This document shows, in pieces, positions 35,819 to 62,850 of a DNA stretch of 64,000 nt. Position 1 is the first letter of the stretch. Each line of letters opens with the position of its first letter. The DNA is taken from contig NC_014623.1 of the NCBI RefSeq assembly GCF_000165485.1, positions 949,501-1,013,500 of the forward strand, given 5' to 3'. The notes beneath the pieces are model-generated. The model was given only the letters and a program-made list of their open reading frames with translations, had not been told where the DNA came from and made no database searches. This DNA is from Stigmatella aurantiaca DW4/3-1 (lineage in GTDB: Bacteria > Myxococcota > Myxococcia > Myxococcales > Myxococcaceae). A program made the translations under genes and the position numbers.

Positions 35819-38800
35819 TCAGTGAGAGTCCTCCGGTTTCGGCGTCTGAAGAGGGAGAGGCGCAATGGAACGGAGGGGAGCATCACTGCCCAGAGCGATG
35901 AAGGGAGCCCAGGCATGGGGATGGGGGTGTGTTGCACGCAGAGAGAGCATGGCCTCTCGAAGTGCCGAGGCCCGGCCCAACCCCGCTAAGAGGTTGCGGT
36001 AATAGAGGTCCATGAGAAGGCGAGTGGAGTCGTCATTGACCTTCCAGAGACTGACGAGGAGGGTTTCAGCACCAGCGGCCATGAGCGCACGGCGAAGGCC
36101 ATAGACGCCCTGACCGAGGTGGACTTCGCCGCGACCTGTGTCGCAGGCGGAGAGGACAACGAGCTGAGTGCCCCAAAGGTTGAGCCCAGCCAGTTCCAGA
36201 GCGGTGACGAGGGAGGCTTCGGGAGCAGGAGGAGAGGACGAGGCGGTGGAGAGAGCGCCTGCTAGGACGAGGCCGGAGTTGAGCAAAGGCTCTGGCTGGG
36301 GAGGAGGAGGACTGCCCAATGAATCGACGAAGGCCAAACCCCGAGACTCGGAGGAGGAGGAGGAATTGCCGAGGAAGAATCCGTGGGTGGCCAGGTGAAG
36401 AATGCCCGGGGTCGCGAGGCTGAGAAGCCGCTGCTTGGAGGCGTCTGGGCCGAGGAAGAGTTGAGCCTGAGGAAGCAGGCGTTGAATGGCGTGGGCCTCT
36501 AGACGAGAGCCGGGAAGAGGAACCCAGGCGCTTCTGGGCAAGTGGGAGGGAGGCAGGGAGAAGAAGCGCTCCAGAGCGTCGGAGGGAGGAGCGGAAGGCA
36601 GAGAGCCAGAAGGCGCCGGAGAGAAGGGAGAGGAGAAGTCAGGGTCGGCGAAGACAAAGACAGAAGAGGAGGGAGCGCTGTCCAGGGGACGAGGCAGCAC
36701 CTCACTGCCGGAGGTGAGGTAGGAGAAGTCGAAGGAGTCCAGGAGGAAGGCGTGGCCATCGTGGAGAGCGGAGAAGGGGACGAGGCTGAGCTGGCCATCG
36801 GCCGAAAGGAAGATGCGGCGGGTAGAGCCGAGCAGGGGTCTCAGGGGACCAAAGGTGCTTCGATAGAGTTGCTGAGAAGCGGTTTGGAATGAGGCGTCCT
36901 TGTCAGCCAGAGCATCGCGAAGGCGAGAGGCAGCTTGGTCAATGGGAGGAGCCGGGCCCAAGTCGACGGAGCGGACAGAGGCATCCGGGAAGAGAACCAG
37001 AGCCAGGTAGCGCAGGTGGCGGACATTCTTGGCAGGAGAAGTGCCAGGTTTGGGAATCAAGGGGCTGTCGTTGTAGGCGATGAATTCGACGAGAGCGGAG
37101 TCCTTGGGGAGTGAGGAGGAGACGCGATCGACGATGGTGTCGGGGGAAGGCAGAGAGGAGAGGGCGCGAAAGGGAGCAGAGGTCTTGGCCAGTTCCGCTT
37201 CGAGCGCGTCACCCTCCTGGGTGAGGGATTGAAGGCGCTGTTGGTAAACCTTCGGAGAGAGCGCACCTGGGCCTGAGAAAGAGAGAGAGGCCAGTTGGGT
37301 ACGCAGGCCCCGGAGGCGCTCGAAAACATCGCGATCTTCGAGAGCCAGGCTGGAGTAAAGGGTGCGAGAGATGGTGGCGGTCTCTGAGACGGAGCGACCC
37401 TTGAGAAGGAGAGCGGCGCTGAGGGCGAGGCGTTGAACGCGAGCGTCCTGGGGGTGAGCGCGGAGCAGTGAATAGAGCCATTGCTCGTCGTTGCGCAGGA
37501 GGGAGAGGAAGGAGGAGAGGCGGGGCTCGGAGAAGTCGAGAGCCTCATGGCGAAGCCGGCGCTCGGAGATGGAAAAGGAGCGCGAGAAGAGAGGTAATGC
37601 GTCTGAAAGGCGATGCTGGGCCAGACGAAATTTACCGAATGCGTAGAGAGAGTGGGCGACTTGGGGGTGATGGTTGCCGAGAAACATCTCCAAGAGAGAA
37701 AGCGAGCGCCGGAAGAGAGGCTCCGCCCTTTTATACAACCCCTGGTCAGCGTAGAGGTTGGCAAGGCTGTTGAGAGAGGTGGCGACGTCGGGATGGTTCT
37801 TGCCAAGGGCAGCCTCTCGGATGGCCAGGGCCCGCTGGTAGAGGGGCTCCGCTTGGCCATACAACCCTTGTTCCGAGTAGAGGTTGGCGAGGTTGTTGAG
37901 AGAGGGGGCGACGTCGGGATGGTTCTTGCCGAGGGAGGCCTCTCGGATGGCCAAAGCCCTCTGGTAGAGGGGCTCCGCTTGGCCATGCAACCCCTGTTCA
38001 AAGTAGAGGCGGGCGAGGTTGTGGAGAGAGGAGGCGACAAGGGGGTGGTTCTTGCCGAGGGTGGCTTCGCGGATGGTCAGAGCCCGCTGGTACAGGGGCT
38101 CCGCCCGGCCATACAACCCTTGGGTAGTGTAGAGGTTGGCGAGGTTGTTGAGAGAGGTGGCGACGAGGGGGTGTTTCTTGCCGAGGGAGGCTTCGCGGAT
38201 GGCCAGAGCCCGCTGGTACAGGGGCTCCGCCCGGCCATACAACCCTTGGTTAGAGTAGAGGTTGGCGAGGTTGTTGAGAGAGGTGGCGACAAGGGGGTGG
38301 TTCTTGCCGAGGGATGGCTCGCGGATGTCCAGAGCCCGCTGGTAGAGGAGCTCCGCCCGGTTATACAACCCCTGGTCAGAGTAGAGGTTGGCGAGGTTGT
38401 TGAGAGAGGAGGCGACAAGGGGGTGGTTCTTGCCGAGGGCGGCTTCACGGATGTCCAGAGCCCGCTGGTAGAGGGGCTCCGCCTGGCTATACAATCCTTG
38501 GTCAGAGTAGAGGTGGGCGAGGTTGTTAAAAGAGGAGGCGACGTCGGGATGGCTCTTGTCGAGGGAAGCTTCGCGGATGGCCAGGGCCCGCTGGTAGAGG
38601 GGCTCCGCCCGGCCATACAACCCCTGGTCAGAGTAGAGGTTGGCAAGGCTGTTGAGAGAGGTAGCGACGTCGGGATGGTTCTTGCCAAGGGAGGCCTCGC
38701 GGATAGCCAGGGCCCGCTGGTAGAGGGGCTCGGCATGGGTTAGCTCCCCCTTCAGCCGATAAAGTCTTCCCACCAGATTCAGGCAATTGGCAACGTCAGG

Positions 38801-39013
38801 ATGGGTCTTCCCAAGGACGGTCTCTCTGATCGAGAGCGCATGCTCCGCTTGTGCAAGCGCCTCGGGATACTTGCCCGCGTCCATGAGCTTTGTTGCCTCG
38901 TCAAAGTTCGCCTGAGCATCTGTCAGCCGCGCATCCGACGTCTCTTCACTGGTCCTCCCTTCTGTTGCACAGAAAAGAAGTATCGCCGTCATCCAACCGA
39001 AAATCTGACGCAT
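35819..39013 (-). CDS. TPR-repeat CHAT-domain (caspase-like) protein
   Basis: The 1064 residues begin with a probable signal peptide (MRQIFGWMTAILLFCATEGRT). About ten tandem 42-residue TPRs (about 60-480) follow, built on LGKNHPxVAxSLNNLANLY and QGLYxxAEPLYQRAL (kinesin-light-chain type). After a helical linker comes a CHAT domain at about 780-1055. It has the caspase-type dyad: His877 in HLATHGFF and Cys957 in VVLSACDTGRG, followed by GLRRALMAAGAETLLVSLW. CHAT domains are cysteine peptidases activated through partner sensing. The coding strand is unusually pyrimidine-rich, unlike its neighbours. It is transcribed with the unknown gene upstream (39174-40139). ATG at 39013 is chosen because it opens the signal peptide; the longer upstream frame overlaps that gene. 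Confidence 0.88.
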   Translation of the reverse strand: MRQIFGWMTAILLFCATEGRTSEETSDARLTDAQANFDEATKLMDAGKYPEALAQAEHALSIRETVLGKTHPDVANCLNLVGRLYRLKGELTHAEPLYQRALAIREASLGKNHPDVATSLNSLANLYSDQGLYGRAEPLYQRALAIREASLDKSHPDVASSFNNLAHLYSDQGLYSQAEPLYQRALDIREAALGKNHPLVASSLNNLANLYSDQGLYNRAELLYQRALDIREPSLGKNHPLVATSLNNLANLYSNQGLYGRAEPLYQRALAIREASLGKKHPLVATSLNNLANLYTTQGLYGRAEPLYQRALTIREATLGKNHPLVASSLHNLARLYFEQGLHGQAEPLYQRALAIREASLGKNHPDVAPSLNNLANLYSEQGLYGQAEPLYQRALAIREAALGKNHPDVATSLNSLANLYADQGLYKRAEPLFRRSLSLLEMFLGNHHPQVAHSLYAFGKFRLAQHRLSDALPLFSRSFSISERRLRHEALDFSEPRLSSFLSLLRNDEQWLYSLLRAHPQDARVQRLALSAALLLKGRSVSETATISRTLYSSLALEDRDVFERLRGLRTQLASLSFSGPGALSPKVYQQRLQSLTQEGDALEAELAKTSAPFRALSSLPSPDTIVDRVSSSLPKDSALVEFIAYNDSPLIPKPGTSPAKNVRHLRYLALVLFPDASVRSVDLGPAPPIDQAASRLRDALADKDASFQTASQQLYRSTFGPLRPLLGSTRRIFLSADGQLSLVPFSALHDGHAFLLDSFDFSYLTSGSEVLPRPLDSAPSSSVFVFADPDFSSPFSPAPSGSLPSAPPSDALERFFSLPPSHLPRSAWVPLPGSRLEAHAIQRLLPQAQLFLGPDASKQRLLSLATPGILHLATHGFFLGNSSSSSESRGLAFVDSLGSPPPPQPEPLLNSGLVLAGALSTASSSPPAPEASLVTALELAGLNLWGTQLVVLSACDTGRGEVHLGQGVYGLRRALMAAGAETLLVSLWKVNDDSTRLLMDLYYRNLLAGLGRASALREAMLSLRATHPHPHAWAPFIALGSDAPLRSIAPLPLQTPKPEDSH
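37620..38830. repeat. tandem 126-bp coding repeats (TPR array)
   Basis: The same block recurs at a 126-base period. For example, the GGTTCTTGCC-type segment is found near 37795, 37921, 38047, 38173 (variant TTTCTTGCC), 38299, 38425, 38551 (variant) and 38677. AGAGTAGAGGTTGGCGAGG-type segments recur in register. The period equals 42 codons, so every unit encodes one TPR in frame. DNA identity between central units is high. Confidence 0.9.
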
Positions 39014-39173
39014 CTCGTCCCACCAGATAAAAGGGTTCAACAAAAGAGTTCGAATCTCACTGCGCGATGATAAAGGCCACACGCTAACCCCAGAGGCAAA
39101 AGATGCGGCAGCCTTCCACTGTGGTCGGCTCAATGCACATCCGATGAACGGCACAAGATTCGCCGAGTGAGAG

Positions 39174-40139
39174 TCAAGTGTCCGCGCCTCCAAAGGCAGC
39201 CGTACACGCTCCACCGGGTTCGTTCTCCTTCGTTCCATCCAGGAGGAGGTGTCTGCTCTCTCTGCCCAGGAACTTCCCCCCAGTGCCAGAGCCAACCAGA
39301 GCCTGGGGCGGTCGCTCTTGAAGGCCAAGCGGAGCCCTTCGCGACGCTTCATGGCCCGGAGGCACTTCCATGCAAGGAGCCCCCTCTCCCAGCGGAGTGC
39401 GTGGGTCAGCCGAGAGCGCCTCGGGGGGTGGGCCGCCCGGGGGCGTCTGTTGGCTCGAACCTGTAGGGCAAGCAGACAGGTTGGGCCCCTTCGCCTCCGA
39501 CAGCCTCTCCGGGGCCGCCTCTTGCTCCGGGGTGGGGTGAGAGGGGCTGGTGTCTGTGCAGAGTGGGGACCGTGACGACTCCCTGGGCTCCTGCGGGGGT
39601 GGAAGGCTGGCCAGCAGGTGCGCGTCACTCGCCTGGAGTAAGGCGGGCAGTTCCCGGCGCAGAAGCTGCGCGTCCTTGGCGGCCAGGGCATGCATCGCAC
39701 AGAGTGCCCACTGCCGAGTGGCCTGCCCATTCAGGTGCGGCCTCAGCCTCCGAGCCATTCCACGGTCCGCGCGCTCCAGCGATTGCAGCAGCAGCGCTTG
39801 TCCGGGACGGTCCACCGCGCGGGCCGCCTGCCTCAGCAACGCGAACTCCAGCTCCGCCCACCTGCTGGGGTTGTCGTCCCAGCGGGCCTCCTCCGCCAAC
39901 TCGAAGCACAGGCCTGCCAGCGTGTCCAAGTCCCTGGCGGAGGCTTGTTGGCAACTCGCCGCCAGCAGTTCCACAGCCGTCTCTCGCTTGAGGGCCAGAA
40001 AACCCTCCAGCAACTTGCGTCTCTCCGGTTGAGCGGCGCCCGGGCCCTCCAGCATCACACCCACCTGGGGCAGCAGGCCTTGCGACATCATCCGCTCCAG
40101 GTCCTGCTCCACTCGTCCGACGAGCCCCAACCCTTCCAT
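39174..40139 (-). CDS. unknown helical protein with Pro/Ser-rich C-terminus, upstream of the CHAT gene
   Basis: The 321-residue protein (from MEGLGLVGRVEQDLERMM) is helical over residues 1-190, with Leu/Ala-rich amphipathic helices such as RDLDTLAGLCFELAEEARW and GQALLLQSLERADRGMARRL. These look like a small helical-repeat domain. The remaining 130 residues are low-complexity Pro/Ser/Glu. I do not recognise it. It has no signal peptide or transmembrane helix. AGAGGGGG precedes ATG 40139; an in-frame ATG at 40172 is an alternative start. It is 160 bases upstream of the CHAT gene on the same strand, so the two probably act together. Confidence 0.6.
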   Translation of the reverse strand: MEGLGLVGRVEQDLERMMSQGLLPQVGVMLEGPGAAQPERRKLLEGFLALKRETAVELLAASCQQASARDLDTLAGLCFELAEEARWDDNPSRWAELEFALLRQAARAVDRPGQALLLQSLERADRGMARRLRPHLNGQATRQWALCAMHALAAKDAQLLRRELPALLQASDAHLLASLPPPQEPRESSRSPLCTDTSPSHPTPEQEAAPERLSEAKGPNLSACPTGSSQQTPPGGPPPEALSADPRTPLGEGAPCMEVPPGHEASRRAPLGLQERPPQALVGSGTGGKFLGRESRHLLLDGTKENEPGGACTAAFGGADT

Positions 40140-45044: not shown

Positions 45045-45992
45045 TCAGATGCGCCTCAAGACACAGCTCCGTCCCCCCGTCCGCAGGTTGATTGCAGGCA
45101 GCCGTGAGAGCGGTACCTCGAAGCCCGCGGCCTTGGCCTCCTCGCGCGAGAAGGGGATGGGGAACATGACGTTCTCCAGCACCACGAAGCCCCCGGGGGC
45201 TGTCAGCTCGTGAAAGCGCCGCAGGACGGCAGGCGAGTTGTTCTTCGCGTCGGAGTCCGGCTCGCCGCGGGCGCACGAGCTCGACTCGAAGACCGCGGTC
45301 GCGACGATGAGCTCGAAAGGTCCGGGCAGGGCGGTGTGCAGAAAGTCGCCCTGGATGAGCCGGGGGTGTTCGATTTGTGGCCCCAGGTCGATCCCCAAGG
45401 CATCCGCGCCCAGCTTGATCAACTCCAGAAGAAGACCGCCTTCCTGGGGGCCCACTTCGAGGATCTTGCGTCCCTGAAGAGGGCCCAGGAGGGCTTCCGC
45501 CCGGGTGAGTGCCTGGACCTGAAGGATGTGAAGGGAGCCGCCGAGCCGGGCTTTCATGGCAGGCAGCCGCGAGAGCAAGGAGGCGGCTTCCTCGGCGATG
45601 GCGTCCAGCTCGGTCACCAGCGCGCGTGCCGCCTGGACCCCGCCCGATTGAAGCGCCCGGAGGTGGGTCTCGGCCCAGCCGCTGTCGATGAGCGCCTGCG
45701 GGAGGGGCTGGTGAAAGCGGACGTCTTCCGGGAAGACGGCCGTGTACTCCTGAAGGTGGAGGGGGAGCCACTTCGACCACTTGGGATCCGCGTGGTGCGC
45801 TGTGAGCTGGGTCCGTGCCGCGGCGCTGCCCGCCTCGTGGACCGCGAGCTCCGTCAAGGCACTGGCCGGGTTCGGCGCGGCGAGCAGGGTTTCCAGCAGG
45901 GCATCACGCGCTGCCTCCTGTCCCGCGGCGAGGTCCCGGAGAAGCTTCCAAAGCTTGGGGTTCTGCTCCAGAGGTTCGGCTGTGCCCGTCAT
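45045..45992 (-). CDS. SAM-dependent methyltransferase, last gene of the PKS/NRPS operon
   Basis: The 315-residue protein has a helical N-terminal extension of about 165 residues, then a class I methyltransferase core. ILEVGPQEGGLLLELIKLGADALGIDLGPQ contains motif I (ExGxxxG) and the acidic end of strand 2. LIQGDFLHTALPGPFELIVAT holds the QGD and motif II regions, and FHELTAPGGFVVLENVMFP is motif III. It lies 63 bases downstream of the giant synthase on the same strand, so it probably methylates the product (O- or N-methyl). The acceptor atom cannot be read from sequence. Confidence 0.8.
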   Translation of the reverse strand: MTGTAEPLEQNPKLWKLLRDLAAGQEAARDALLETLLAAPNPASALTELAVHEAGSAAARTQLTAHHADPKWSKWLPLHLQEYTAVFPEDVRFHQPLPQALIDSGWAETHLRALQSGGVQAARALVTELDAIAEEAASLLSRLPAMKARLGGSLHILQVQALTRAEALLGPLQGRKILEVGPQEGGLLLELIKLGADALGIDLGPQIEHPRLIQGDFLHTALPGPFELIVATAVFESSSCARGEPDSDAKNNSPAVLRRFHELTAPGGFVVLENVMFPIPFSREEAKAAGFEVPLSRLPAINLRTGGRSCVLRRI

Positions 45993-46055
45993 GGTTTCTC
46001 CCGCACACCGCGATCGGCCGTGAGTGTGTCAGCAGCCACCCTCCTAGGGCCAGTT

Positions 46056-56357
<10,302 letters not shown>

Positions 56358-56383
56358 CTTGTCTCGTCTCTGAGGCAGAGCGT

Positions 56384-57604
56384 TCAGGGATTGAGGAGAA
56401 CGGGGAGCGTCTGCGGCCCCCGGAAGATGATCTCCTTCTGCCAGTCGATCGTCCCGGGCACGAGTTCCATTTTGGGAAACTCCCGGGCGAGCGTGCTGAT
56501 GGCGAGCTGCCCCTCGATGAGGGCCAGCGCGGCCCCGAGGCAGTAGTGGATGCCTCCGGAGAAGGCGAGGTGGCGGTTCTCCTTGCGGGTGATGTCGAAC
56601 TTGTCCGGATCCGGGAACTGAGAGGGATCCCGGTTCGCCGAGCCCAGCGAAAAGTAGATCAGATCGCCTGCCGGAATGGTCTTCCCGTGGAGGGTGAAGT
56701 CCTTCTTGGGCACCCGCGTGTTGAGCTGCACCGGACTGTCGTAGCGGAGAATCTCATCGATGGCGCCGCGGATGAGCGCTGGATCCTGCTTCAACCGCTC
56801 GAACTCGTCCCGGTGGCGCAGCAGCGCGAGCACGCCGTTGCTGATGAGGTTCACCGTCGTCTTCTCGCCCGCGATGAACAGCAGCATGCAGACCGAGAGC
56901 ATCTCGTCCTCGGTGAGCTTGTCGCCCTGGTCGGTGACGGCGATGAGGCTGCTGATGAGGTCGTTCTGCGGATTGCGCCGGCGTTCCGCGAAGAGCTGCC
57001 GGAAGTACTCCAGGAACTCCTGGGCCACGCGGTTCATCTCCGCGTACTGCTCGAGTGACCGGAGTGGATCGAGGACGCGGGACAAACCATCGGCCCAGCG
57101 CGTGACGGAGGCGTGCGCCTCCTCTGGCACCCCGAGCATGCTCGCGATCATGGTGACCGCCAGCGGGCAGGCCAGCTCCCCGACGATCTCCATCTTGCCG
57201 GTGTCCCTCACCCGGGCAATGAGCTGGTCCACCATCTCCTGCACGCGCGGGCGCAGGGCCTCGACGGCGCTGGGGGTGAACGAGCGGTTGACCAGCCCCC
57301 GGAGCCGGGTGTGGTCGGGTGGATCGCACAGCATGAGCCAGCGGCGCATCGCCTGGGCGAGCGTGCGCAGCTCTCCGGTCTTGTTTCTTTCGAGGAACTG
57401 GCTCTTGCGCTCGATGCGCGTCGGGATGTCGAAGACGCCGAAGGTGTTGTCCCGCAGGAGCACCTTGACGTCCGCATAGCGGGTGATGACCCACGCGCCC
57501 ATGACGGTCCGGTGAACCGGCTCCTCTTCGCGAAGGCGCGTGTAGACCGGATAGGGGTCCGCGTGGAACGCGGGATCGAACAGGTTGAGTTTGACGGGAT
57601 TCAA
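56384..57604 (-). CDS. cytochrome P450, tailoring enzyme of the cluster
   Basis: The 406-residue protein has all P450 landmarks: I-helix LLFIAGEKTT, EILR (ExxR), RDPSQFPDPDKFDITR and the heme loop FSGGIHYCLGAALA with Cys355 as iron ligand. HTRLRGLVNRSFTP is the bacterial CYP C-helix motif. It is soluble, of the actinobacterial/myxobacterial class. The start is TTG overlapping the FAAL stop (TTGA), and translation upstream of that point is just the FAAL gene in another frame. It lies between FAAL and the synthase, so it likely hydroxylates the acyl chain or the released product. Confidence 0.92.
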   Translation of the reverse strand: MNPVKLNLFDPAFHADPYPVYTRLREEEPVHRTVMGAWVITRYADVKVLLRDNTFGVFDIPTRIERKSQFLERNKTGELRTLAQAMRRWLMLCDPPDHTRLRGLVNRSFTPSAVEALRPRVQEMVDQLIARVRDTGKMEIVGELACPLAVTMIASMLGVPEEAHASVTRWADGLSRVLDPLRSLEQYAEMNRVAQEFLEYFRQLFAERRRNPQNDLISSLIAVTDQGDKLTEDEMLSVCMLLFIAGEKTTVNLISNGVLALLRHRDEFERLKQDPALIRGAIDEILRYDSPVQLNTRVPKKDFTLHGKTIPAGDLIYFSLGSANRDPSQFPDPDKFDITRKENRHLAFSGGIHYCLGAALALIEGQLAISTLAREFPKMELVPGTIDWQKEIIFRGPQTLPVLLNP

Positions 57605-59649
57605 GGCTTCAGCTCGTTGACGAGGTGCTTGGCCAGAATCTCCGCGCTGGGATGCTCCCAGAACAGGGTGGGCTCGAACTCCCGGCCCAACCAGCCCGCC
57701 AGTTCGCCCGTGAGGCTCACGGCGACCGCGGAGTCCAGGCCATAGCGCTCGAAGGGATCCTTGATATCGATTTCCTCTGCCTTGATGCCCAGGTACTGGG
57801 CCATGCGGCCGAGGAGCCAGTTCTGGATGTCCTCTTCGGTTCGCCCGGCCGGGGCCGCCGCCCACGCGGGGTTCGCCAAGGTGTCTTCTTGAAGGCTCTC
57901 CACCCACTCGCCCACGGTGTTCAGGCTCTTGTCGAGGAAGCCCTTGCGGCAGGCATGGCGTTGGATTTTCCCGCTGGAGGTCTTCGGGATGCTGCTCGTC
58001 TTGATGAGCACCACCGCGTGCACGTGCAGCTCATGGGATTCCGAGACGGCTTGCCGGATGCTCCCCACCACGTCGTCGACGTCGAGGTTGCGCAGGTAGC
58101 TGCGCTCCACCTCCTGGACGATGACGAGGCGCTCCTCGTCCTCCACCGTGACGGAGAACGCGGCGCCGCCGCTCGCCTTCAACGCCGGGTGGCACTCCTC
58201 CACCGTCTGCTCGATGTCCTGAGGGTAGTGGTTGCGCCCGCGGATGATGATGATGTCCTTCAGGCGGCCGGTGATGACGAGGTCCTCCCCGCGGAAGAAC
58301 CCAAGGTCCCCCGTGCGCAGGAAAGGCCCTTCGCCCGTGTCTTGGAGGTAGGCGCGGAACGTCTCTTCTGTCTGGGCGGGCCGGTTCCAGTACCCCTGGG
58401 CCACGCTGGCGCTGGAGACCCAGATCTCTCCGACCTGGTCCTCCGCGCAGACCGTCCGGTTCGTGGGCTCCACGATGCGGACCTTTTCGAGCCCGCTGCG
58501 GCCGGAATACACGAGGGCGTGGGTTCCATCCCCGCCGGGACCGGTCGAGCCGCCATCCACTTCGACGATGCGGCCTTGTTCCAGCGCGGCCGCCTGGACG
58601 TTGCAGATGAAGGGCCTCTTCTTGGGGACGCCTCCCGAGACGACCAGCGTGGTCTCCGCCATGCCGTAGCAGGGGTAGAGCGCCGAGGACTTCAGGCCAT
58701 AGTCCTTGAAGGTCTCCATGAAGCGAAGGACGGTGCTGGCGCGGATGGGCTCGGCGCCGTTGAAGGCCACCTCCCAACTGCTGAGATCCAGCCCCATGCG
58801 CTGCTCGGGAGACACCTTGCGGGCGCACAAGTCATAGGCGAAGTTGGGCCCGCCGCTCGTCGTTGCCCGGTAGCGGGAAATCGCATGCAGCCACCGCGCT
58901 GGCTTCTGGATGAACGCTGCGGGAGGCATCAGGACGGACTTGATGCCCAGGTAGAGCGGCTGCAACACATTGCCGATGAGCCCCATGTCGTGAAACAGCG
59001 GCAGCCAGCCGGCGAAGACCGTCCGCTCGCTGTGACCGAAGGTCTGCTGAATCATCCGCTCGTTGTGCAACACGTTCCCGTGGGAAACCATCACGCCCTT
59101 GGGGGTGCCGGTCGAGCCCGAGGTGTATTGGAGGAACGCCAGCGTCTCGCCGTTGACGTCCGGCTCCTTCCACGTGTCTCGCGCCTCCACGGGGATGTTG
59201 TCGGTCGAGAGCCATTGCATCTTGCCCAGCTCGGGCACGCGCTCGAACTGGACTTCCAGGTTGGACAGCAGGGGGGTCGTGGTGAGCACCCACGCCGCGC
59301 CCGCGTCCTCGATGACGGTCTTCAGCCGGCGGAGGTTCTGATTGGTCCGGGGCGGATAGGCGGGAACAGCCACCACGCGGGCATAGACACAGCCCAGAAA
59401 CGCGACGATGAACTCCAACCCTGGCGGATACAGCAGCAGCGCCCGTTGATTCGCGGCTCCCAGCGCTTGCAGCCGGGCCGCGACCGCTCGCACGCGTTGC
59501 TCGAGCTGGCCGAACGTCAGCGTTTGGGATTCGTTCTCCCCATCGTCCATGAAGATGAATGCCGTCCTGTCGGGATGACGGGCGGCGCGCTCCCGCAGCA
59601 ACGCGATGAGCGTGGGGAACTCAGCGGCTTCAATCGATTGGGCAGACAT
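57601..59649 (-). CDS. fatty acyl-AMP ligase with C-terminal ACP (starter loading)
   Basis: The 682-residue protein has the FAAL adenylation fold. YTSGSTGTPKGVMVSHGN is the P-loop, GWLPLFHDMGLIGNVLQPLYLG is the FAAL/FadD32 signature, YGMAETTLVVSGG the A5 region, and GRLKDIIIIRGRNHYPQDIEQTVE the hinge. KIQRHACRKGF follows at the end. A carrier domain (about 605-680) has Ser640 in YGLDS. FAALs activate free fatty acids as adenylates and load them directly on ACP without CoA. It is the first gene of the minus-strand biosynthetic operon, preceded by a candidate promoter with an inverted repeat at 59791-59826. Confidence 0.93.
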   Translation of the reverse strand: MSAQSIEAAEFPTLIALLRERAARHPDRTAFIFMDDGENESQTLTFGQLEQRVRAVAARLQALGAANQRALLLYPPGLEFIVAFLGCVYARVVAVPAYPPRTNQNLRRLKTVIEDAGAAWVLTTTPLLSNLEVQFERVPELGKMQWLSTDNIPVEARDTWKEPDVNGETLAFLQYTSGSTGTPKGVMVSHGNVLHNERMIQQTFGHSERTVFAGWLPLFHDMGLIGNVLQPLYLGIKSVLMPPAAFIQKPARWLHAISRYRATTSGGPNFAYDLCARKVSPEQRMGLDLSSWEVAFNGAEPIRASTVLRFMETFKDYGLKSSALYPCYGMAETTLVVSGGVPKKRPFICNVQAAALEQGRIVEVDGGSTGPGGDGTHALVYSGRSGLEKVRIVEPTNRTVCAEDQVGEIWVSSASVAQGYWNRPAQTEETFRAYLQDTGEGPFLRTGDLGFFRGEDLVITGRLKDIIIIRGRNHYPQDIEQTVEECHPALKASGGAAFSVTVEDEERLVIVQEVERSYLRNLDVDDVVGSIRQAVSESHELHVHAVVLIKTSSIPKTSSGKIQRHACRKGFLDKSLNTVGEWVESLQEDTLANPAWAAAPAGRTEEDIQNWLLGRMAQYLGIKAEEIDIKDPFERYGLDSAVAVSLTGELAGWLGREFEPTLFWEHPSAEILAKHLVNELKP

Positions 59650-59891: not shown

Positions 59892-60683
59892 TCAGCGGGA
59901 GCGGGCCATCAGCGACGCGGGGACGTTCGTCGCCGTGAGTCCTCCGTCCACCGCGAGGTCCTGTCCGGTAAGAAAGGACGCCTTGTCACTGAGGAGGAAT
60001 GCGACGAGCCCGGCGACTTCCTGGGGCGTTCCCACGCGGTTCATGGGTTGGAACGAGGAGGCGAAGGCGCGGCCCATGCGATCATGCAGCCGCCAGCCCG
60101 CGGTGGCCATCTCGGACTCGACGATGCCTGGGCTCACCGTGTTGGCGCGGATGTTTTTCTGCGCATACTCCACGGCCACCCCGCGTGTGAGCGCGGCGAG
60201 CCCCGCCTTGGACGCGCTGTAGGCGGAGAGTCCCGGCATGGCGCGCACCGCGCTGACGGAGGCGCAGTTGACGATGGCGCCCCCGCCTCCGGCGAGCATG
60301 GCCTTGAGCTGGTATTTCATGCACCAGAAGGCGCTGCGCACGTTGGTGGCCATGACGGTGTCGTACTCGTCGTTGGTCATCTCGATGAACGGCTTCGAGA
60401 GGCTGGTGCCCGCGTTGTTGAAGGCGCCATCCAACCGCCCGTAGGTGGTGAGGGCGGCCTGGACCATCGCCTCGACATCGCGCTCGGAGAGGACATCGGC
60501 GGTGACCCAGGTGGCTTGGCCTCCCTGGGCCTGAATGAGGGCGATGAGCTCCCGGCCTTTGTCCTCGCGCCGCGCGCACGCGACAACCTTGGCCCCCTCG
60601 GCGGCCAGGGTGAGGGCGGTGGCCCAACCGATGCCCGAGCTCGCGCCCGTCACGAGGGCGACTTTGTCCTTCAGGATGCCCAT
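59892..60683 (-). CDS. SDR-family oxidoreductase (glucose 1-dehydrogenase-like)
   Basis: The 263-residue protein shows TGASSGIG (cofactor loop, about 12-19), ACARREDKG (Arg pair after strand 2, suggesting NADP), NNAGTS, the catalytic Ser in CASVSA, YSASK and SPGIVESEM. The C-terminus [15 protein letters not shown] is typical of classical SDRs. ATG at 60683 begins [13 protein letters not shown], the family's usual start. It lies upstream of the biosynthetic operon on the same strand but before that operon's own promoter. Membership in the cluster is possible, not shown. Confidence 0.88.
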
Positions 60684-60753: not shown

Positions 60754-62850
60754 CTACTTCGCGCCCGGGGAAGGGGGCGTGCTGGGGGCGCCACCGTCCA
60801 GGAAGGCGCGGTAGGCCTCGAAGCTGTACGGACGGCCGAGGAAGTTCTTCACGAGCTCGGCGGCAGGCTGGGCCCCTCCGGGCTCCAGCACCGTGCGGCG
60901 GTACTTCAGCGCGGTGTCCGCGTTCAGGTAGCCGCTCTTCTGGAACTCGGCCTCCAGGTCCTTCGCGATGACCGAGGACCAGAGGTAGGTGTAGTACGCG
61001 GCCGAGTAGCCATCCAGGTGGCCGAAGGCGAGCTCGAAGTGGGTGCCGTCCCGGTACTCGTGCCGGAAGGGGCTTAGCTGCTTCTGGAGTTCCGCCATCA
61101 CCGCCGTGGTGTCGAAGCCCGGCGCGCGCGAGTAGTACTGAAGGCTCACGGCGGACAGGAAGAGCTGGCGCCGGGCCCACAGCCCCTGGCCGAACTCCTT
61201 CGAGGCCCGCAGCTTCTCCACCAGCTCCGCCGGAATCGGCTCGTTCGTCTGGAAGTGCCGGGCGAACTCCTTCATCACCTCGGGCTGCTTGGCCCACTGC
61301 TGGAGCAGCATGGAGGGGGTCTCCACGAAGTCCCACTCCGTCTTGATGCCGCTGATGCCGCTCCACCGCTGGTGGCCCGAGAAGATGGCGTGCAGCAGGT
61401 GCCCGAACTCGTGGAAGAACGTCTCGACTTCATCGTGCGTCATCAGCTCGCCGGGGCGCGCGAAGTTGCACACCAGCACGCCCTCCGGGAGGCGCTTGCC
61501 GGACTGGCCCGTCACCAGATCGAACTGCGCCGCGTGCTTGTACTTGTCATTCCGCGGGTGCATGTCGAGGTAGATGCGGCCCAGGGACTGGCCGCCCTCC
61601 ACCACGTCATAAGCCTCCACCTCGGGGTGCCATACCGGGGTGTCCTTCACGGGTTGAAAGGTGATGCCCCAGAGGTGGGAGGTGATGCCCATCACCCCCT
61701 CTTTCATGCGCGCATACTCGAGGTAGGGGCGCACCGCCTGGGAGTCGAACCCGAAGCGCTCCGCCCGCAGCCGGTCCTCGTAGTAGTCCTGCTCCCACGG
61801 CTCCACGGTGGTGGCGCCCTTCACATCCTTCTTCTTCCGCTCCAGCAGCTCCGCCATCTCCCGCTGGGCCCGGGCCCGCGTCACGCCCTCGAGCTGCTCG
61901 ATGAAGCTGGCCGCCACCTGGGGCGTGCGCGTCATCCGGGTCTCGGTGTTGTAGGCCGCCCAGCTCGCATAGCCCAGGAGCGTCGCCAGCTCGTGCCGCT
62001 TGGCGATGAGCTGCGACAGGACGGGCTGGTTCTGGGGGAAGGCGCGCTGCCGGTAGGTGCGCCACAGCTTCTCGCGCGTCTTGGCGTTCTTCGCGTACGT
62101 CATCAGCGGGAAGTAGTCCGGGTAGTTGGTCGTGATGACCACCTTGCCGTCCTTGCCCGGCGCGTGCGCCCGGAGATAGTCCTCCGGCAGCCCCTCCAGC
62201 TCCTTGGGCGTGAACGCGACGGTGCGCACGTCCTCGGCGATGTTCTTGCCGAACTGCTGGCCGAGCTTGAGGATCTCCTCGTTGAGCGCCTTCACCTGGG
62301 CCCGGGTGGCGTCGTCCCGGTCCACGCCCGCGCGGCGGAAGTCGAGCAGCGTGCGCTGCATCCAGTAGCGCGTGGCGTCATCCGCCCGCGAGAGGTCCAC
62401 CGCGGACAGGGCGTCATAAACCCCTCGATCCTGGGAGATCTCCACGTTGGCGGTGTCCACCAACTGCTCGCACGTGCGGGCCGCATCCCGCATGGCCGCG
62501 TCCGGGTGCACTTCGCGGGCGAGGCTGGAGCGGCTGGCGGTGTTGAAGAGCGAGGCCATGGCCTCGTCATACGCGGCGAGCACGGCGGCCCCTTGGGCCT
62601 TCACGTCGAGCGTCTTCAGCGAGGCCACCTGGGCGTGCGCCCGCTCGATGCCGGCGGTGCACGCGGCGGTGAAGGCGGCGGCAGTGCCCGTGAGCAGCTC
62701 CGAGCCGTTCGGGGGGGGCAGGGGCTGCTTCACCGCCTCGGCCGTCTGGGACGAGGCCTCGGGGGCAGGGGGCGCGGCCTCGGGCGCGCGGTGGGTGGAG
62801 CAGCCCGTCATGGCCAGGGCGGCCGAGAGGGCGAAAGTGGCGAGTCTCAA
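60754..62850 (-). CDS. M3-family metallopeptidase (oligoendopeptidase-type), lipoprotein
   Basis: The 698-residue protein has a lipoprotein signal ([10 protein letters not shown], Cys17) followed by a Pro/Ala linker. The peptidase M3 domain carries the zinc site [16 protein letters not shown] (HEFGH near residue 480), and the third ligand Glu lies in [28 protein letters not shown] and the C-terminal helices are also typical of thimet/Dcp-type enzymes. It would degrade short peptides in the periplasm or at the outer membrane, fitting a predator that feeds on protein. It is transcribed in the same direction as the YebC gene 84 bases upstream. Confidence 0.93.

What the first reader, a model, noticed from the sequence alone, without database searches (positions are those of the whole stretch)
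45045..59649. Compact pathway predicted to make a 3-amino-2-hydroxy-acyl-glycine lipopeptide
Seen: FAAL-ACP, P450, KS-AT(malonyl)-ACP-aminotransferase-monooxygenase-C-A-PCP-TE, methyltransferase. Known: the FAAL plus KS-AT-ACP-AMT-MOX-C order builds 3-amino(-2-hydroxy) fatty acids in microginins and puwainaphycins, and AMT modules act the same way in iturins/mycosubtilin. Here one glycine-type NRPS module and TE follow at once, so the product should be very small. Such alpha-hydroxy-beta-amino acyl units are metallo-aminopeptidase inhibitor pharmacophores (microginin, bestatin, amastatin). I do not know a myxobacterial compound matching this.
Basis: partly seen in the sequence, partly recalled or inferred. 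Interest (0 to 1): 0.78.

Follow-up and report, generated by a model that had tools for sequence, protein, structure and literature searches.

The report
Tiny lipopeptide pathway in a myxobacterium
A compact block of four myxobacterial genes appears to build a very small lipid-plus-glycine compound whose head group is of a kind known to block metal-containing peptidases; no matching compound turned up in the papers searched.

Summary
The core observation holds: on the minus strand lie a FAAL-ACP, a P450 and one 3,433-aa KS-AT-ACP-AMT-MOX-C-A-PCP-TE protein. The gene list needs two corrections. The "methyltransferase" (45045-45992) is probably a flanking gene: two same-genus genomes carry it directly beside the M3 peptidase gene with nothing between, and 5 of 7 genomes with the cassette lack it. 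A short-chain dehydrogenase (59892-60683) travels with the cassette.

Best reading: the FAAL loads a fatty acid, the PKS module adds C2, and AMT and MOX give a 3-amino-2-hydroxy-acyl chain (MOX closest solved relative PuwE, about 64% identical; AMT closest MycA, about 55%). One residue, predicted glycine, is added and the TE releases the product. The nearest other condensation domain is about 373 kb away. The TE has a cysteine nucleophile, 1 of 15 thioesterase-family matches in this genome, and present in 6 of 6 glycine-type cassettes, so plain hydrolysis should not be assumed. A divergent cassette (G082) keeps the lipid-building half and has a different NRPS and release half. Product, P450 and SDR steps and bioactivity are all inferred. 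New variant of a known kind.

The parts
59892..60683 (-). Short-chain dehydrogenase/reductase (263 aa), upstream gene of the cassette; ATG at 60683
   Evidence: Pfam adh_short_C2 1.1e-68 (on a slightly longer frame); 72-94% identical neighbour of the FAAL in G077, G073, G074, G075, G043; absent near G082's cassette
57601..59649 (-). Fatty acyl-AMP ligase with C-terminal ACP (682 aa)
   Evidence: AMP-binding 3.2e-71, PP-binding 3.4e-12; closest solved chains are FAAL-type (7r7g, 3kxw, FadD32/FadD23); no NCBIfam FAAL model reaches its cut-off
56384..57604 (-). Cytochrome P450 (406 aa), TTG start overlapping the FAAL stop codon
   Evidence: p450 1.1e-33; closest solved CYP267B1, PksS, BioI; I-helix AG[E/Q]KTT in 7 of 7 cassettes; start context
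46056..56357 (-). Hybrid PKS-NRPS, 3,433 aa: KS-AT-ACP-AMT-MOX-C-A-PCP-TE
55068..56357 (-). KS domain
   Evidence: ketoacyl-synt 1.8e-98; DTACSSS motif
53748..54770 (-). AT domain, HAFH motif (malonyl type, recalled)
   Evidence: Acyl_transf_1 2.6e-68; motif
53388..53645 (-). ACP
   Evidence: PP-binding; GADS motif
51519..52880 (-). Aminotransferase domain (AMT)
   Evidence: Aminotran_3 1.4e-53; MycA AMT 6kfm 4.6e-160, 245 of 443 identical
50253..51320 (-). Luciferase-like monooxygenase domain (MOX)
   Evidence: TIGR04020 531 bits, cut-off 244; PuwE 6ket 1.3e-163, 223 of 350 identical
48813..50150 (-). Condensation domain
   Evidence: Condensation 3.9e-94; HHIFCDG motif
47283..48773 (-). Adenylation domain; code read as D-I-L-Q-L-G-L-I-W (glycine type, recalled)
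   Evidence: AMP-binding 3.3e-82, TIGR01733 433 bits, cut-off 317; motifs
47028..47240 (-). PCP
   Evidence: PP-binding; GGNS motif
46059..47015 (-). Thioesterase domain, nucleophile Cys3231, with Asp3258 and His3405
   Evidence: PF00975 3e-15; closest solved AB3403 4zxh; GGFCSGS in 6 of 6 glycine-type cassettes; only Cys among 15 TE matches in the genome
45045..45992 (-). Methyltransferase-like gene: flanking, probably not part of the pathway
   Evidence: Adjacent to the M3 peptidase gene in G078 and G079, which lack the cassette; no match in G073, G074, G075, G043, G082
60754..62850 (-). M3-family oligopeptidase gene: the other flank, not part of the cassette
   Evidence: Peptidase_M3 1.9e-108; next to the methyltransferase in G078 and G079

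Best explanation
A four-gene cassette (SDR, FAAL-ACP, P450, KS-AT-ACP-AMT-MOX-C-A-PCP-TE) makes a minimal lipopeptide. Inferred steps: the FAAL adenylates a fatty acid and loads its own ACP; the KS-AT-ACP module adds one malonyl-derived C2 unit; AMT turns the 3-keto group into a 3-amine; MOX hydroxylates C2; the C-A-PCP module adds one residue, predicted glycine; the TE releases the chain from its cysteine. The backbone is therefore a 3-amino-2-hydroxy-acyl-glycine, a lipid counterpart of bestatin and a one-residue relative of microginins. The P450 most likely oxidises the lipid chain, because it stays with the lipid-building half even in the divergent cassette; the SDR most likely oxidises a hydroxyl, on the chain or at C2. 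Release as free acid or as a ring is left open. Shown: gene content, domain order, intact active-site motifs, conservation, cassette boundaries. Not shown: any enzyme activity, the product or its target.
For: Domain architecture in one open frame. MOX and AMT each have a near full-length match to the enzymes of the known pathways, PuwE (223 of 350 identical) and MycA (245 of 443). The published PuwE has the same order and is assigned a 3-amino-2-hydroxy-acyl product (passages of PMC4219810). The cassette is the only block shared by the window, G075 and G043 under the thresholds used (ORFs of 90 aa or more, 1e-15, rows of 100 bits or more), and sits between two genes that are adjacent in G078 and G079. 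Only one of the 43 condensation-domain matches of this genome lies in the window; the nearest other is about 373 kb away. In G082 KS, AMT and MOX are 72, 74 and 68% identical but C, A and PCP only 43-45%, with no TE match.
Against: No product is known. The glycine code is recalled; my full-text search for the code string found 0 papers and two papers searched by passage did not hold it. No NCBIfam FAAL model reaches its cut-off for the ligase. SDR relatives 65-69% identical occur in G048, G045 and G081 without the cassette, so the SDR is not cassette-specific. A cysteine TE argues against simple hydrolysis (passage of PMC6668435). G043's copy has its reading frame broken inside the MOX, so the pathway is broken or mis-sequenced there.
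Confidence: 0.68

Rival explanations
1. The same assembly line ends in ring closure: the cysteine-bound chain is attacked by its own 3-amine (a seven-membered 1,4-diazepane-2,5-dione) or by that of a second chain (a head-to-tail cyclic dimer), or by the 2-hydroxyl (a morpholine-2,5-dione).
For: The TE has a Cys nucleophile in 6 of 6 glycine-type cassettes, 1 of 15 TE matches in the genome. Swapping Cys to Ser in ObiF favours hydrolysis (passage of PMC6668435), which suggests that cysteine TEs favour nucleophiles other than water.
Against: The Asp aligns with AB3403, i.e. the common triad position and not the position seen in the ring-forming ObiF and SulM enzymes (passages of PMC11298585). AB3403 itself is uncharacterised. 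No ring-size evidence exists.
Confidence: 0.2
2. The methyltransferase is recruited into the pathway in this genus and the product is methylated.
For: Same strand, 63 bases downstream of the PKS-NRPS stop, in the window and, in the same order, in G077.
Against: Present next to the M3 peptidase gene in G078 and G079 without the cassette, also in G081 without it; absent in 5 of 7 cassette genomes.
Confidence: 0.08
3. The module works as part of a larger assembly line (iteration, or partner modules encoded elsewhere), giving a longer peptide.
For: Iterative single NRPS modules have been proposed, e.g. for solanimycin (first part and passages of PMC10204066). The genome holds 43 condensation-domain matches.
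Against: The protein ends in its own TE, the cassette is a closed block in four genera-level contexts, and the nearest other condensation domain is about 373 kb away.
Confidence: 0.08
4. The end product is an alpha-keto amide: the SDR oxidises the MOX-made 2-hydroxyl, giving an electrophilic 2-oxo-3-amino-acyl-glycine.
For: The SDR is conserved with 6 of 6 glycine-type cassettes and the MOX-made alcohol is the one certain alcohol in the scheme.
Against: The SDR substrate is unknown; its best solved relatives are general SDRs; the alcohol could equally be one made by the P450.
Confidence: 0.15

Closest known systems
Puwainaphycin synthetase PuwE with FAAL PuwC and ACP PuwD (cyanobacteria)
   Same: FAAL start, then KS-AT-ACP-AMT-MOX-C-A-PCP in one protein; MOX 223 of 350 identical
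   Different: PuwE passes its chain on to further modules and the final peptide is a large ring, with an extra reducing, methylating PKS module; here a TE follows at once, and a P450 and SDR are added
Microginin synthetases (mic)
   Same: FAAL, KS-AT-ACP, AMT logic giving 3-amino-2-hydroxy fatty acids; zinc-peptidase inhibitors (passages of PMC12250027)
   [quoted passage not shown] here one residue
Iturin / mycosubtilin MycA
   Same: FAAL and AMT logic; AMT 245 of 443 identical
   Different: Products are cyclic heptapeptides and the lipid has no 2-hydroxyl (recalled); no MOX in MycA (recalled)
AB3403 (Acinetobacter, PDB 4zxh)
   Same: C-A-PCP-TE terminal module with a cysteine nucleophile and the usual Asp position
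   Different: No PKS, AMT or MOX part; product unknown (described as uncharacterised)
Bestatin / amastatin (actinobacterial aminopeptidase inhibitors)
   Same: A short peptide headed by a 3-amino-2-hydroxy acid
   Different: Aryl or short alkyl head group, other biosynthesis (recalled); here a fatty chain
Split system on a Streptomyces chartreusis plasmid (L083)
   Same: KS-AT-ACP then AMT-MOX-C-A-PCP; about 37-38% identical over these parts
   Different: Two proteins, a second condensation domain instead of a TE, an MFS transporter; no P450 or SDR match found

Membership tests
PuwE/microginin-type 3-amino-2-hydroxy-acyl synthases | FAAL plus ACP at the start | tested here: met
   Pfam and PDB matches; NCBIfam FAAL models below cut-off
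PuwE/microginin-type 3-amino-2-hydroxy-acyl synthases | KS-AT-ACP-AMT-MOX-C order | tested here: met
PuwE/microginin-type 3-amino-2-hydroxy-acyl synthases | MOX of the TIGR04020 family | tested here: met
   531 bits, cut-off 244; PuwE closest solved chain
PuwE/microginin-type 3-amino-2-hydroxy-acyl synthases | AMT aminates C3 and MOX hydroxylates C2 | not testable with these tools
   Needs enzyme assay or product structure
Microginins (compound class) | At least two NRPS elongation modules (PMC12250027) | tested here: not met
   One module, followed by TE; no other condensation domain within about 373 kb
Iturin/mycosubtilin synthetases | No MOX; FAAL fused to the PKS-NRPS (recalled) | tested here: not met
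   MOX present and FAAL on a separate protein
ObiF/SulM ring-forming cysteine thioesterases | Cysteine nucleophile | tested here: met
   GGFCSGS
ObiF/SulM ring-forming cysteine thioesterases | Catalytic Asp in the shifted position | tested here: not met
   Asp and His align with AB3403, which has the usual position; by sequence alignment only
Glycine-activating A domains | Specificity code DILQLGLIW | tested here: inconclusive
   Residues read from motifs; the code's meaning is recalled, 0 papers found for the string

The most novel reading that the evidence does not exclude
A cysteine thioesterase closes the smallest possible AMT/MOX lipopeptide into a ring (a lipidated 1,4-diazepane-2,5-dione or its cyclic dimer), and the same lipid-building half (FAAL-ACP, P450, KS-AT-ACP-AMT-MOX) has been joined to different terminal modules in different myxobacteria (glycine with Cys-TE; in G082 a code I recall as glutamate-like with a serine hydrolase), i.e. 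a natural set of interchangeable one-residue peptidase-inhibitor makers.
Probability: 0.17. Interest if true: 0.72.

Novelty: new variant of a known kind. Interest (0 to 1): 0.52.

Why it matters
It would be a small system for studying how AMT and MOX domains work on carrier-bound chains, how a cysteine TE chooses between water and an amine, and how the lipid-building half is joined to different terminal modules. The predicted head group is that of known aminopeptidase inhibitors, so the product could be tested directly. The bounded four-gene cassette tells which genes to delete or express.

Tried and rejected
Solanimycin was followed because NCBIfam listed SolG and SolI as weak hits (far below cut-off). 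The paper's cluster is a trans-AT PKS with three NRPS genes, not this architecture (first part and passages of PMC10204066). Rejected.

The methyltransferase was first used as the query for the single genome-contig scan. It found one locus, a Myxococcaceae MAG in which no cassette was seen. In hindsight the MOX or P450 would have been the better query, so named relatives outside the order were not surveyed.

A search for ring-forming TE relatives led to AB3403, ObiF and SulM; the shifted Asp of ObiF and SulM is not seen here by alignment, so a beta-lactone or beta-lactam was set aside; the last residue, if glycine, also has no suitable side chain.

Repeats at the cassette edges: no direct repeats of 12 or more bases within either edge region searched; the two edges were not compared with each other, so the mode of insertion is unknown. 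Gain here versus loss in G078 and G079 was not tested with a tree. No structure prediction was run.

Paper searches that gave no matching compound. The library holds open-licence papers only, so this is weak evidence of absence.

Rows left out: one search printed only tblastn rows above 90 bits; only ORFs with a hit of 100 bits or more; one search holds only the first half of G043 (its second half was read) and includes an unrelated G047 protein, which is not counted.
Full report
WHERE IT IS. The window lies in a single-contig genome of 10,260,756 bases. This size is what I recall for Stigmatella aurantiaca DW4/3-1; a review table lists that strain with 10.3 Mbp, 67.5% GC and one contig (passages of PMC8538405). 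No call names the genome.

WHAT IS THERE. On the minus strand: SDR (59892-60683), FAAL-ACP (57601-59649), P450 (56384-57604, its TTG start overlapping the FAAL stop) and the hybrid protein (46056-56357). Pfam gives KS, AT, ACP, class-III aminotransferase, luciferase-like monooxygenase, condensation, AMP-binding, PCP and thioesterase in that order in one open frame. The monooxygenase scores 531 bits against TIGR04020 (cut-off 244) and the A domain 433 bits against TIGR01733 (cut-off 317). Active-site motifs are intact: DTACSSS, HAFH, GADS, YGK, HHIFCDG, GGNS, GGFCSG.

WHAT BELONGS TO IT. The methyltransferase-like protein matches in 6 of 145 genomes of the order at 1e-6: G000, G077, G078, G079, G081 at 73% or more, and G138 in two weak pieces. 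The MOX matches at 68% or more in 7 of the same 145: G000, G077, G073, G074, G075, G082, G043; the next best hit is 55%. Both are found in only two genomes, G000 and G077. In G078 and G079 the M3 peptidase gene and the methyltransferase are neighbours: homology to the window runs to window position 60786 and resumes at 45975, with 89 bases between in each of the two genomes, against 14,810 bases in the window. So the cassette is bounded by these two genes and the methyltransferase is most simply a bystander. It cannot be excluded that it was recruited, as it is 63 bases downstream on the same strand, also in G077. The SDR sits upstream of the FAAL in 5 of 5 other glycine-type genomes (G077, G073, G074, G075, G043; 72-94% identical). 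Against a dedicated role, relatives 65-69% identical occur in G048, G045 and G081 with no cassette beside them (near the G081 copy there is a P450, 38% identical). Between the window, G075 and G043, the cassette is the only shared block that passed the thresholds.

DISTRIBUTION. With the P450 as query, 12 of 195 genomes of the phylum matched at 1e-100: six at 84% or more (window included), G082 at 54%, five at 42-45%.

HOW IT SHOULD WORK. PuwE, as described, is a PKS module, aminotransferase, monooxygenase and one NRPS module, and is assigned the making of a 3-amino-2-hydroxy-acyl unit on a FAAL-loaded chain (passages of PMC4219810). Our MOX is identical to PuwE's at 223 of 350 positions and our AMT to MycA's at 245 of 443. 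The A-domain residues read D-I-L-Q-L-G-L-I-W, which I recall as a glycine code; a full-text search for the string found no paper. Only one of 43 condensation-domain matches of the genome is in the window, and the nearest other is about 373 kb away. The direct prediction is 3-amino-2-hydroxy-acyl-glycine.

RELEASE. The TE nucleophile is Cys3231. GGFCSGS is seen in 6 of 6 glycine-type cassettes (window, G077, G073, G074, G075; G043). Among the 15 matches to PF00975 in this genome, 14 show serine and one, this one, cysteine. The closest solved TE is AB3403. A paper on SulM states that among the structurally characterised NRPS thioesterases only ObiF, SulM and the uncharacterised AB3403 use cysteine, and that AB3403 has its Asp in the common position (passages of PMC11298585). 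Our Asp3258 and His3405 align with AB3403's. In ObiF a Cys-to-Ser change led to hydrolysis (passage of PMC6668435). Cysteine therefore hints at a nucleophile other than water, such as the free 3-amine, but does not prove it.

THE P450 AND SDR. The P450's closest solved relatives are CYP267B1, PksS and BioI. Its I-helix reads AGEKTT in six cassettes and AGQKTT in G082 (7 of 7), where CYP267B1 has AGHETT. A lysine stands where the usual acid is (the acid's role is recalled). This may mean unusual chemistry. The P450 stays with the lipid-building half also in G082, whereas no SDR match is found in G082.

THE DIVERGENT CASSETTE. G082 has FAAL-ACP, P450 and a 3,576-aa protein. KS, AMT and MOX are 72, 74 and 68% identical to ours, AT 59%, but C, A and PCP only 43, 44 and 45%, and there is no TE match. 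Its last domain is a serine alpha/beta hydrolase (GHSRAG) and it has two ACP-like motifs in tandem. Its A code reads D-T-K-D-L-G-V-V-D, which I recall as glutamate-like. An ABC transporter and a 3-hydroxyacyl-CoA dehydrogenase follow. This pattern, conserved lipid half and different terminal half, suggests that the halves evolve separately.

WHAT IS KNOWN. [quoted passage not shown] No paper in ten searches described a myxobacterial compound of this predicted skeleton; I read listings, and passages of a few papers, not whole texts, and the library holds open-licence papers only.

VERDICT. It is a new variant of a known kind: a PuwE-type synthase ended after one residue.

Noticed in passing
window 35819-39730 (-): 1,303-aa protein with many TPR repeats and a C-terminal CHAT (caspase-like) domain; the 36-38 kb bin has an outlying GC skew of 0.319.
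   Followed up: no
window 60754-62850 (-): M3-family oligopeptidase, with a lipoprotein-like N-terminus, directly beside a pathway for a predicted peptidase inhibitor; but it is also there in genomes without the cassette.
   Followed up: partly
L063 1721-19698 (G082): Divergent cassette with tandem ACPs, another A code, a serine hydrolase release domain, an ABC transporter and a 3-hydroxyacyl-CoA dehydrogenase.
   Followed up: partly
L064, L057-L058 (G043): The hybrid gene's reading frame is broken inside the MOX domain in this otherwise complete cassette; real inactivation or a sequencing error cannot be told apart here.
   Followed up: no
L083 7093-22137 (Streptomyces chartreusis plasmid): Unannotated split system: AMP-binding protein, MFS transporter, KS-AT-ACP, AMT-MOX-C-A-PCP-C; the only one of 116 plasmid records whose match covers 80% or more of the AMT-MOX query.
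   Followed up: partly
window 56384-57604 (-), I-helix: P450 with AG[E/Q]KTT in place of the usual AGxET motif in 7 of 7 cassettes.
   Followed up: no
G000 C1:943867-944205, about 5.6 kb before the window start: Another FAAL-type C-terminal AMP domain in a 747-aa frame; 1 of 10 such matches in the genome.
   Followed up: no
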